Position numbers and translations under genes: made by a program. Shown in pieces: positions 22,180 through 25,188 of a stretch of DNA of 25,188 nucleotides. This stretch comes from JACRDV01 sp024860865 [NCBI: Methanobacteriota archaeon] (GTDB taxonomy: Archaea > JACRDV01), in the NCBI GenBank assembly GCA_024860865.1, contig JACRDV010000155.1, positions 1 through 25,188 of the forward strand, written 5' to 3'. A model generated the notes under the pieces. The model was given only the letters and a program-made list of their open reading frames with translations. It made no database searches and had not been told where the DNA came from. Positions within the stretch are counted from its first letter, which is position 1. Every line of letters begins with the position of its first letter.

Positions 22180-22211
22180 CTTTTTAGTGCAATAAAAAAT
22201 TGGGTATAATT

Positions 22212-23309
22212 ATGGCGAGCAAATCTTTAAACTACATCATTGCGTTTGATGTGGAAGGCCCAATATTAAATCCAGCAATTGATTTTGCTTGGCTAAGTTT
22301 AAAAAAATTCGCAAAAGAATTTTATGAAAAAGTAAAACTGTTTGATGAATATGATGACTTGCGATGGGTTTATGAAAGAGATAAGAATGGACACTCAACT
22401 GGGGCTATGCCTTTGATTTCATTATGCGCTTGCATATGCAAATCGATTACTGATGAGGCATTACTACAACTTGCTAAAAAAAGTGTAATAGAAAATCTTG
22501 GAACGAAAGAAGTTCTTGACTGGCTCAAAGAAAAAGAGATTCCAGTTTATTTTGTAACAAGTTCTTATCCAGCAGTATCATTAATAGAGGGATATAGACA
22601 CGGAATTAAATCGTCACATATCTACTGCTCTGGATACCAGCTATCCGAAGAAAAGGCAAAATATTTCAATTTTAAGAGGGATCTAACCGAAGAATTGCGC
22701 GAAAGATCGCCAGTAAGTAAATTAAAGATGTTTCAAACCGAATTATCTGGGTTTTTAGGAGATTATCTCCAAAATTGTTCTGAATTGAGATCAGCATACA
22801 TAAAAAATAATGTTTCAAAAATAGAAACCTTGAAAAAAGAACAAGAATTAGTTTTCAAGAAAATACGAGAAAAAGAGTTACGCGAGGAGTTAACTTATCT
22901 TCTATACGAAGAAAAGGGAATAATGGGCTCCCATAATAAAAAAAGAGTCCTTCAGTCAATTTCAACATATGAAAATATAATATACATTGGAGATGGAATA
23001 GTAGATTGTGATGCTTTAGCATATTCAAAATATGGAATTTCACTGAATTGCACAAACGATTATGCTCTTTTATCATCTAAAATCAATGTTGCAACTAATA
23101 ACATTGCAAATATTATTCCAATTATTTCTGAGATAATAAAAGGAAATTTTAATGTTAATAAAATTAAAAATGACTTTACTTCAGATGAGATCAAAATTTT
23201 TTCCAACAATGATATTAAAAACAATTTACCCAATATTAAAAACATAAATAACTTTTTTAAATCCATTTTAAGAGAGAATACCAGTCTATTTGACCCAGTT
23301 GTCTGGTAG
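22212..23309 (+). CDS. HAD-superfamily protein resembling EhaR-type phosphatases
   Basis: 365 residues from ATG 22212 (an upstream TTG at 22200 is also in frame). Motif I is IIAFDVEGPILNP with Asp13 and Glu15 in the DxD place, motif II is VTSS, and motif IV is GDGIVDCDALAYSKYG near residue 260. The DVEGP form and the following EYDDLRWV and AMPLISL segments recall archaeal HAD proteins annotated as energy-converting hydrogenase subunit EhaR. A Lys/Glu-rich helical insertion lies at about 190-225, and the last 60 residues are Asn/Ile/Lys-rich and atypical. Substrate unknown; no eha genes are nearby. Confidence 0.65.
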   Translation: MASKSLNYIIAFDVEGPILNPAIDFAWLSLKKFAKEFYEKVKLFDEYDDLRWVYERDKNGHSTGAMPLISLCACICKSITDEALLQLAKKSVIENLGTKEVLDWLKEKEIPVYFVTSSYPAVSLIEGYRHGIKSSHIYCSGYQLSEEKAKYFNFKRDLTEELRERSPVSKLKMFQTELSGFLGDYLQNCSELRSAYIKNNVSKIETLKKEQELVFKKIREKELREELTYLLYEEKGIMGSHNKKRVLQSISTYENIIYIGDGIVDCDALAYSKYGISLNCTNDYALLSSKINVATNNIANIIPIISEIIKGNFNVNKIKNDFTSDEIKIFSNNDIKNNLPNIKNINNFFKSILRENTSLFDPVVW

Positions 23310-23356: not shown

Positions 23357-23433
23357 GGATAAACGAAACAGGTTCGGATTATTTCCATTCTTGGAGGCAT
23401 AAACGAAATATGTTCGGTTATTTTAAGTTAGGC
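23357..23433 (+). repeat. Degenerate attC-like element with two 24-nt direct repeats
   Basis: Two related copies lie exactly 40 nt apart: 23361-23384 (begins AAACGAAACAGGTTCGG) and 23401-23424 (begins AAACGAAATATGTTCGG). Because each copy is itself nearly palindromic (CGAA...TTCG), the first can also pair with the second to make a long imperfect stem. The 77-nt element ends with GTTAGGC (23427-23433) followed by GAAA, exactly as the second element at 24342-24426 does. It directly precedes the next gene's ribosome site. Read as a weakened integron attC site; a simple tandem hairpin is the alternative. Confidence 0.45.
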
Positions 23434-23474
23434 GAAAAACCTCGGCTTTCAAAAGGCACGGAGGTTAAATAAAA

Positions 23475-24330
23475 ATGGCAGTACCAGAGCAGTATCAATC
23501 TGATGTCGAAGCGATTCTGGCAAGGCGATATGACAACGGTGGTGATTTATGGGCCACACCTGATCGACGGTTAGGTAAGGGAAGCCCATTCTCTACTCTC
23601 GACTGCGCTATGATGCTTTGGGAGTTGGGAATGGATCCTTCCGAGCCTATATTGAAAGAGACAGCCGAGCTGATCTTAGGTGCATGGCGAGAAGGCGGAA
23701 GGTTCCAACTGGCGCCAAAGGGTGCAATAATATCCCTGTCATACCGCTACAACGGCGAGAATCCTTTGCCGCTTAGGATACGCTTCTGATAGCCGACTTA
23801 GGAGAACGTTTGAACATCTCTTGGAAATCCAACACAGCGACGGCGGCTGGCGTTGTAATACCTACAAATTTGGTAGAGGTCCAGAGACAACCTTTTCTAA
23901 TCCCGGCCCGACATTAGAAGCCCTGGACGCTTTTAGATTCACACATTTCCTCAATCAGGACCAGCGTCTTGATAAGGCAGGGGAATTCTTGCTTGATCAT
24001 TGGGTAACACGCAAGCCCCTTGGTCCTTGTCATTTTGGGATTGGTTCTCTGTTTATGAAAGTTGAGTATCCCTTTCTTCGCTATAACCTCTTTTTCTATG
24101 TTTATGTTCTATCTTTTTACAACAAAGCAAAGAAAGACCAGAGATTTCTGGAAGCGCTTCGGGTTTTAGAATCCAAGTTAGTTGATGGAAAGATTGTGGT
24201 CGAAAATCTTAATCGGAAGTTGGCAGGTTTTTCCTTCTGCAAAAAAGGGGAACCAAGTGACCTTGCGACTAAGCGTTACCATGAGATATTGAAAAACCTC
24301 GGTAGAGACCATGAAAAAACAAAAGTATAA
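23475..24330 (+). pseudogene. Squalene-cyclase/prenyltransferase-like gene with one frameshift
   Basis: The frame opening at ATG 23475 (GGAGGT at 23461-23466) stops at 23789, and a second frame continues to TAA 24330. Dropping one A in GCAATAATATCCC (about 23727-23730) joins them into about 285 residues reading GAIYPCHTATTARILCRLGY through the break and then EIQHSDGGWRCNTY. This is the alpha-alpha repeat pattern (PCxTA...LCRLGY, DGGWR) of prenyltransferase/squalene-oxidase repeat proteins. No cyclase DxDD motif is seen, so function is unassigned. More G+C-rich than the HAD gene. The shift may be a real mutation or an assembly error. The gene lies between two attC-like elements, 11 nt before the second. 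Confidence 0.7.
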
Positions 24331-24341
24331 CTGGGCTCATC

Positions 24342-24426
24342 GCATAACATAGCGTATCTGGCTTTGTGCCTTCGACACTCCGCCTAAATCCATACTGGTA
24401 CTTCAGATACGCTCGGAACGTTAGGC
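24342..24426 (+). repeat. attC-like recombination site
   Basis: Outer boxes GCATAAC (24342-24348) and GTTAGGC (24420-24426) are reverse complements except for one base and fit the RYYYAAC/GTTRRRY ends of integron attC sites. Inside, AGCGTATCTG (24351-24360) and CAGATACGCT (24404-24413) are perfect 10-bp complements around a 43-nt centre. The total of 85 nt falls in the attC size range. The spacers between outer and inner boxes are unequal (2 and 6 nt), which is less canonical. It begins 11 nt after the preceding stop codon and ends 32 nt before the next ATG. Confidence 0.6.
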
Positions 24427-24458
24427 GAAAGGCTGCCCAAAAATGGAGGTACAAACTA

Positions 24459-25188
24459 TGGCAGAAAAATTAATAATCCAAGGGTTTAAACAATTTGGAG
24501 GAAAGCATTGTCAGACCGCTGCATTGAGGAATATCTTGGATTATCATGGCTTGCATCTTTCAGAAGAGATGCTATTAGGTTTGATGGGAGGAGTTGGATT
24601 CGTTTACTGGTATATGAGACTTATGCCAGCTCCTTTTATTGGCACCAGGTTTGGGAAGCGTGAAGAACCTTTGATAGATGTATGCAAAAGAATTGGCGGT
24701 AATGCCACTATATTTCAAACTACAAGTGCTGAAAAAGGGTATGAGGAATTAAAAGAATTACTCCGTGCAGGAGAACCAGCTTATGTATTCGTAGATATGG
24801 CTTATCTTTCTTATATGGCTATTCCAGAAGTAGCTCATTTTGGTGGTCATACTGTCGTTGTCTATGGCTTAGATGAGCAAGAGGACAAAGTCTACATTTC
24901 AGATCGTGGGAAAAGTCCGGTAACAGTTAGTATAGAGGACCTAAAGAAAGCAAGAAATTCAAAATTTCCTCCGTTTCCCCCGAAGAATAAACTGCTGAAG
25001 GTAAAATATCCTTCAAAGGTTGGGAATTTGGAAGAGGGGATCAAAGAAGGAATTAAAGAATGCTGCGCAAATATGTTAAAACCACCGATAAAAAATCTTG
25101 GTCTCACCGGGATAAAGAAATGGGCGAGTTTAGTGCCAAAGTGGCCAGAACAATTTAAAGGAATAAATCTGTTCGGTTGTCTTTTTAA
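24459..25188 (+). CDS. BtrH_N-domain cysteine peptidase/acyltransferase-like protein (partial)
   Basis: Open frame from ATG 24459 to the window edge (243 residues, no stop reached). GGAGGT at 24446-24451 lies 7 nt before the ATG; an earlier in-frame ATG at 24444 overlaps that site and is rejected. The start MAEKLIIQGFKQFGGKHCQT places a Cys at 18; HFGGHTVVVYG gives His121 and VYISDRGKSP gives Asp139, the Cys-His-Asp set of the butirosin-BtrH N-terminal/C39-like fold. Members act as acyltransferases or peptidases on carrier-bound or peptide substrates. The downstream part may be a DUF4872-like domain. It follows the attC-like site at 24342-24426. Confidence 0.7.

What the first reader, a model, noticed from the sequence alone, without database searches (positions are those of the whole stretch)
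23357..25188. Possible integron-style gene cassette array in an archaeal genome
Two successive genes each follow a foldable element that ends in the identical 11-mer GTTAGGCGAAA (23427-23437 and 24420-24430). Each gene has a strong GGAGGT ribosome site and the first shows no TATA box of its own. The 993-bp unit between the two GTTAGGC boxes holds a single gene almost end to end, which is the layout of an integron cassette. Integrons have been reported in archaeal metagenome-assembled genomes, but are rare. No integrase is in the window, so this could be an integrase-less cluster or the edge of a larger array.
Basis: partly seen in the sequence, partly recalled or inferred. Interest (0 to 1): 0.85.

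Follow-up and report, generated by a model that had tools for sequence, protein, structure and literature searches.

The report
Archaeal integron with a non-standard integrase
The end of this archaeal contig is a real gene-capture array (an integron), and related archaeal genomes pair such arrays with an integrase that lacks the part thought to define integron integrases, a testable new variant of a well-known gene-shuffling system.

Summary
The element at 24342-24426 is a true attC hairpin; a covariance model from five sites found three more in the assembly, and two site-bearing contigs carry archaeal marker genes. The first 11-mer abuts an attI-like site, not an attC. The assembly shows only broken integrase copies, on three other contigs. 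Their relatives (46 archaeal loci, the closest 80-89% identical, in several phyla) lie beside attC arrays in canonical layout: 32 of 32 attC hits are 5' of the integrase, on the opposite strand. This ~270-aa integrase lacks the IntI-specific region (51-56 residues in 28 of 28; 99-102 in canonical IntI), and 34 of 37 of the attC stems lack bulged bases, against 0 of 16 canonical ones. Canonical IntI passes its cut-off in 1 of 46 carrier genomes. IntegronFinder requires that region, so the family would be missed, which may explain why most archaeal integrons were reported without an integrase. In two relatives the unit has inverted terminal repeats and 8-bp target duplications. New variant of a known kind; activity untested.

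The parts
22200..23309 (+). Chromosomal gene before the array (HAD-hydrolase-like, weak)
   Evidence: ORF; PF00702 E 8e-4, below cut-off; GC 0.31 against 0.46 in cassette 1
23359..23427 (+). attI-like site: ATAAACGAA (23399-23407) / TTCGGTTAT (23413-23421) inverted pair, then TTTAAG|TTAGGC (cut after the G at 23427); a direct copy of the pair (ATAAACGAA 23359, TTCGGATTAT 23373) lies 40 bp upstream
   Evidence: ATAAACGAA occurs twice in the window, both here. Of 68 inverted 9-mer pairs in the window, the only one followed by GTTRRRY at 2-7 nt; by my arithmetic about 0.4 such are expected by chance in the whole window, about 0.02 at this cut point. Same geometry, by eye, as attI of relatives. 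Against: an attI profile from 31 relatives does not hit it
23428..24420 (+). Cassette 1, 993 bp, between the two G|TTAGGC cut points
   Evidence: Boundaries from the 11-mers and the attC
23475..23789 (+). Cassette 1 ORF, first part (104 aa), no Pfam match; RBS GGAGGT 23460-23465
23821..24330 (+). Cassette 1 ORF, second part in another frame (169 aa), no Pfam match; the gene is probably broken or mis-sequenced
24342..24426 (+). attC: R'' GCATAAC 24342-24348, L'' 24351-24361, L' 24403-24413, R' GTTAGGC 24420-24426; unbroken 11-bp L duplex, spacers 2 and 6 nt
24421..25188 (+). Cassette 2, open at the contig end
24458..25186 (+). BtrH_N/DUF4872 protein, DarH-like acyltransferase family; runs off the contig; RBS GGAGGT 24445-24450
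   Evidence: PF14399 2.9e-31, PF16169 2.9e-16 (from the ATG at 24443); NF053550 97.5 bits, cut-off 300

Best explanation
The right end of the window is an integron array: an attI-like site followed by at least two cassettes, the first ending in an attC hairpin. It was most likely built by an integrase of a distinct archaeal family, of which this assembly shows only broken copies on other contigs. In intact relatives the layout is integrase, then attI on its 5' side, then the attC array. Shown: layout, attC covariation, absence of the IntI-specific region, stems mostly without bulged bases. Inferred: the integrase binds the folded strand of attC and joins it to attI at G|TT as IntI does, but without the I2 helix and extrahelical bases. 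The unequal spacers (1 nt beside R'' and 3-5 nt beside R' in 21 of 37 sites) may set the polarity instead. In two relatives the unit has inverted terminal repeats and 8-bp target duplications, so the platform itself was probably moved there by a DDE transposase.
For: attC model R1, five sites of this genome: 8 hits in the assembly, 3 of them outside the model. Covariation 0 of 500 shuffles as good. On 47 integrase loci, none used to build it, R1 gave 25 hits. R2, built from 33 hits that include these loci, gave 32 in 17 of the 46 archaeal loci, all 5' of the integrase and on the opposite strand, although the 3' side holds more sequence (334 against 140 kb). 14 of 21 loci with at least 1.5 kb of 5' sequence have an attC. 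A related attI between integrase start and first cassette in the 31 loci aligned. 28 of 46 carrier genomes have attC hits, up to 19; canonical IntI over cut-off in 1 of 46. KGxKxR-to-HxLRH spacing 51-56 in 28 of 28 family members, 99-102 in 17 canonical IntI. Family is one clade, 100/100. Own-genome copies on C40, C36, C125. Canonical attC 16 of 16 with two or three bulges; archaeal attC 34 of 37 without a bulge, and in a scan free of my models 12 of 12 at threshold 24, 12 of 15 at threshold 22. Two terminal-repeat pairs, both with 8-bp direct repeats.
Against: No activity is shown. All own-genome integrase copies found are broken and none lies on C116 or C70. The attI reading of 23359-23427 rests on geometry; the attI profile misses it. 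18 of 46 carrier genomes gave no attC hit and 7 of 21 loci with enough 5' sequence gave none. The longest ORF follows attC orientation in only 17 of 25 intervals counted. R1 and R2 were built with an unbroken stem, so they favour bulge-free sites; the model-free scan is small. Of the 34 sites without a bulge, 5 have mismatches in the duplex. The 16 canonical sites come from four sources, 11 of them from one contig. 15 of the 17 canonical IntI were labelled by the spacing itself, though 16 of the 17 were put in a tree and form one clade. Record titles mark most carriers as MAGs.
Confidence: 0.8

Rival explanations
1. An ordinary integrase-less array (CALIN): cassettes placed by a canonical IntI acting in trans or in a past host; the XerA-like integrase nearby is incidental.
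For: Most archaeal integrons in print are CALINs (PMC9668308). One carrier, Argoarchaeum, has a canonical IntI (325 bits). All own-genome integrases found are broken.
Against: No canonical IntI over cut-off in 45 of 46 carriers, though a fragment could fall under the cut-off; 32 of 32 attC hits lie on one side and strand of the XerA-like integrase; related attI; attC stems differ from canonical ones.
Confidence: 0.13
2. The integrase belongs to an ordinary integrative element or is a chromosome resolvase (XerA), and the hairpins are its attachment or dif-like sites.
For: Best NCBIfam match is archaeal XerA (NF040815), 201.6-220.4 bits against cut-off 220; best structural matches are XerA.
Against: 20 other XerA-like proteins from carrier genomes form a separate clade, 92/83 (the label XerA is mine); the hairpins occur as serial copies with an ORF between them; among the best 80 IMG/VR relatives none is above 42% identity.
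Confidence: 0.05
3. Assembly or binning artefact: bacterial cassette DNA joined to an archaeal contig near 23.3 kb.
For: GC steps from 0.30 to 0.50; MAG-like assembly of 160 contigs.
Against: attC sites lie on seven contigs of the assembly counting a truncated one, two of them with archaeal-type markers; estimated contamination 0.73%.
Confidence: 0.02

Closest known systems
Integrons of Archaea (Ghaly et al. 2022, PMC9668308; abstract, results parts 1-2 of 3 and two methods sections read)
   Same: attC arrays with short ORFs in archaeal MAGs of many phyla; mostly without integrase
   Different: Their six IntI were called by matching both PF00589 and an IntI-specific-domain profile. The family here lacks that region. 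They report attI downstream of intI; here attI is on the 5' side of a divergent integrase.
Canonical bacterial integron (IntI1, class 1)
   Same: Divergent integrase, attI, attC with R boxes and G|TT cut point (recalled for IntI1), tyrosine-recombinase fold
   Different: IntI1 spacing 100 residues against 51-56; canonical attC spacers 5/6 with two bulges against mostly 1/3-5 without a bulge
Archaeal XerA; NCBIfam NF040815, which NCBI describes as 'site-specific tyrosine recombinase/integron integrase'
   Same: Size, spacing 55-60, best NCBIfam and structural match
   Different: Separate clade from 20 other XerA-like proteins of carrier genomes; six of seven full-length members tested fall under the cut-off, one just over it

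Membership tests
Integron (platform) | Array of attC sites with cassettes | tested here: met
   in the window only one complete attC before the contig end
Integron (platform) | attI next to an integrase gene | tested here: met
   In relatives. In the window: attI-like only, no integrase
Integron (platform) | Integrase-dependent recombination attI x attC | not testable with these tools
   Needs a bench assay
Canonical IntI | IntI-specific region between the KGxKxR and HxLRH motifs (that it contains the I2 helix is recalled) | tested here: not met
   Spacing 51-56 against 99-102; alignment to IntI4 has 15 query residues where the chain has 60; no extra helix there in the predicted structure
Canonical IntI | TIGR02249 score at or above 265 bits | tested here: not met
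   182.8-200.3 bits in seven full-length members
Canonical IntI | Tyrosine-recombinase domain and catalytic R, K, HxxR, H, Y | tested here: met
   PF00589 on own copy; R132, K157, K160, H219, R222, H245, Y254 invariant in 28 of 28 (assignment of roles recalled)
Canonical attC | Extrahelical bases in the L side of the stem | tested here: not met
   34 of 37 without a bulge; 16 of 16 canonical sites bulged
Archaeal XerA | NF040815 at or above 220 bits | tested here: inconclusive
   201.6-220.4 in seven full-length members, one just over
Archaeal XerA | Falls in the XerA clade | tested here: inconclusive
   Separate clade, but a joint clade is not rejected (p-AU 0.29); the same holds for IntI (0.40)

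The most novel reading that the evidence does not exclude
A second type of integron, widespread in Archaea, in which an integrase without the I2 helix recombines attC hairpins without extrahelical bases, using spacer asymmetry for polarity. It is either a surviving pre-I2 stage or an independent origin from a Xer-like recombinase, and it has been carried between archaeal phyla, in part inside transposon-like units.
Probability: 0.55. Interest if true: 0.92.

Novelty: new variant of a known kind. Interest (0 to 1): 0.8.

Why it matters
Work on integron evolution holds that I2 made single-strand recombination possible, but says that direct proof is not available because deleting I2 abolishes IntI1 function (PMC7790495). 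A natural integrase without that region, next to hairpins mostly without the bases I2 accommodates, makes the question directly testable. It also offers an integrase for archaeal arrays recorded as having none, shows that a detection method that demands the IntI-specific profile would miss the family, and points to gene exchange between distant archaeal phyla.

Tried and rejected
Rfam: no match in the window at gathering score. Canonical IntI in the own genome: only partial TIGR02249 matches, none over cut-off. attI profile on 12 own sequences: no match at the site. Order, class and phylum searches for relatives of the host each returned only the host, so its lineage could not be named and co-occurrence in near relatives could not be tested. 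AU tests did not resolve whether the family is nearer IntI or XerA. Viral contigs with the single own protein: no relative; with the family alignment, the best 80 are at 42% identity or less. The family of the terminal repeats was not settled: rve_3 transposase remnants at one end each in L050 and L083, the second under cut-off; a likeness to IS6-type ends is recalled, not tested. Only two loci showed both ends. The model-free scan with strict R boxes found too few archaeal sites to compare (four or fewer, one of four with two bulges), so a relaxed one was run.

Rows dropped or limited: three of 40 R2 hits could not be parsed for stems, and the 37 include seven own-genome sites and L042:239-296, which is probably attI. 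The latter also stays in the 32. Of 13 viral contigs with a long-spacing integrase, three gave convincing canonical sites; two weak hits in L181 were left out. One search covers 13 of the 17 loci and leaves out two intervals over 3 kb. Trees left out short or near-identical rows. L085 (Clostridia, 27%) is the 47th locus and is not among the 46. The attI end points were picked with hand-chosen motifs.

Literature: judged by titles and abstract starts; none listed an archaeal integron integrase without the IntI-specific domain. Passages only: PMC8371274, PMC4792948, PMC9892861, PMC2669170 (states that no archaeal integrons had been described by 2009), PMC12259885 (used IntegronFinder). PMC7790495: abstract, passages, one section.

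Full report
Observation. In the whole assembly the 11-mer occurs four times: twice here and twice on contig C70, where both lie at attC sites. The element before the second gene is a hairpin with R boxes (24342-24348 and 24420-24426) and an 11-bp L stem. The element before the first gene is not.

attC sites in this genome. An alignment of five sites (window, C70 twice, C77, C36) has 92.6% of cells paired and 11 of 19 pairs changed on both sides, 0 of 500 shuffles reaching this; the structure came from the same five. Model R1 from these five found eight hits in the assembly, three of them new: C128 (67.2 bits), C54 (57.3) and a second on C36 (35.4). C70 also ends in a truncated copy (read by eye) and C50 holds a partial one. 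C77 carries L31e, L21e, IF-6, SRP54, prefoldin and Rpr2 genes; C70 carries EF-1alpha above its cut-off. So these sites are in an archaeal chromosome. The host is the only genome of its order, class and phylum in the held set. Genes beside these sites include a DUF2281/VapB-like protein, the VapB match under cut-off, and a HepT/nucleotidyltransferase pair; toxin-antitoxin genes are common cassette cargo in print.

The integrase. The assembly shows broken pieces of one tyrosine recombinase on C40, C36 and C125. Its closest relatives in named genomes are 80-89% identical and come from Aenigmatarchaeota, Pacearchaeota, Woesearchaeota, Diapherotrites, Nanoarchaeota and Argoarchaeum; Thermoplasmatales, DHVE2 and one Euryarchaeota record follow at 67-71%. 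There are 47 loci, one of them bacterial at 27%. R1, which had seen none of these loci, gave 25 attC hits in them. R2, built from 33 sites that include them, gave 32 in 17 of the 46 archaeal loci. All 32 lie 5' of the integrase on the opposite strand; the 5' sides total 140 kb and the 3' sides 334 kb. Of 21 loci with at least 1.5 kb of 5' sequence, 14 have an attC. Contigs also break on that side: the nearer contig end is on the cassette side in 34 loci and on the other in 4, with 8 ties at the 8-kb limit. Genome-wide, 28 of 46 carriers have attC hits at E 0.001 or less. Canonical IntI over cut-off was found in 1 of 46. As a control, R2 on 80 IMG/VR contigs (0.97 Mb) gave six hits at E 0.1 or less, all in two contigs that themselves carry short-spacing integrases.

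attI. Between integrase start and first cassette, 31 loci were aligned; most show, by eye, an inverted repeat ending at G|TT. I chose the end point by hand-picked motifs, so the alignment is not blind. The window has the same geometry at 23399-23427 and a direct copy 40 bp upstream, but a profile from the relatives does not recognise it.

What is different. All 28 full-length family members have 51-56 residues between the KGxKxR and HxLRH motifs, like the XerA-like proteins (55-60); 17 canonical IntI have 99-102. Of these 17, IntI1 and one over the TIGR02249 cut-off were known beforehand; 15 were labelled by the spacing, but the 16 put in the tree form one clade. So the IntI-specific region is absent. 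The family, the XerA-like set and IntI are each one clade, the family with 100/100 support. Whether the family joins IntI or XerA is open (p-AU 0.40 and 0.29). A predicted structure (mean pLDDT 80.9, pTM 0.58, residues 248-269 poor) is nearest XerA (5hxy Z 21.2, rmsd 10.3 over 236; 4a8e Z 20.2, 11.1 over 227), then IntI4 (2a3v Z 18.7, 12.2 over 254). In 16 of 16 canonical attC sites the L stem has two or three bulged bases and spacers of 5 and 6 or 7; they come from four sources, 11 from one contig. In the archaeal sites 34 of 37 best duplexes have no bulge, 5 of these with mismatches; 21 of 37 have 1 nt beside R'' and 3-5 beside R'. A scan free of my models, requiring only TAAC and GTTA and allowing bulges, found at threshold 24 twelve sites 5' of the integrase, none bulged, and one on each strand 3' of it; at threshold 22 it found 15, of which 12 are unbulged. 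Because I2 is described as the part that accommodates these bases (PMC4792948), the joint absence is what a cognate pair would show. This is correlation, not a test.

Mobility. Near the 3' end of the integrase in own contigs C40 and C36, and at the end of the attC of C77, lies the same 18-mer. In two relatives it forms both ends of a unit as inverted repeats flanked by 8-bp direct repeats: GTTAAAGT in L050 (Diapherotrites) and CTTTTTTA in L083 (Archaeoglobales). The second is low in complexity. Transposase remnants (rve_3, one over and one under cut-off) lie at one end of each unit. In five of six DHVE2 loci the same gene follows the integrase (by eye), as a sedentary integron would show.

Why it was missed. 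The archaeal survey used IntegronFinder, which calls IntI by PF00589 together with an IntI-specific-domain profile; it reported six IntI in 75 genomes and mostly integrase-less clusters. That the present family explains part of those clusters is my inference. NCBI's own XerA-like model, the best match here, already carries the words 'integron integrase' in its description; I do not know on what ground. Nine literature searches listed no such integrase (named in Tried and rejected); many subscription papers and preprints are not covered.

Verdict. Integron array: near certain. Family integrase as its maker: likely. Function without I2 and extrahelical bases: plausible and directly testable.

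Noticed in passing
L189, L176 and L186 (IMG/VR contigs; integrase at L189:3476-4276, L176:7944-8750, L186:7965-8780): A second clade of integrases without the IntI-specific region (spacing 53 in L176 and L186) beside serial, mostly bulge-free hairpins, about ten in the 6-kb contig L189; L176 comes from a 310-kb contig. The six R2 hits among 80 control contigs fall in L176 and L189.
   Followed up: partly
L017:8697-8805 and L019:8479-8590 (own contigs C40, C125): Both contigs end, by eye, in the same divergent ORF start beside the broken integrase, where attI is expected; the contigs may break in one repeat.
   Followed up: no
G014:C41:3521-4306 (Argoarchaeum, L122): A canonical IntI (325 bits) in a genome that also carries the short-spacing family and 19 attC hits, so both types may meet in one cell.
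   Followed up: no
L006:4005-4047 (own contig C77): By eye, a 3' tRNA-like end just before a single cassette; ARAGORN found no tRNA on that contig.
   Followed up: partly
L050:4999-5389 and L018:4743-5086: By eye, the same pair of small genes lies inside the Diapherotrites unit and beside the own-genome C36 array, a possible passenger of the mobile form.
   Followed up: no
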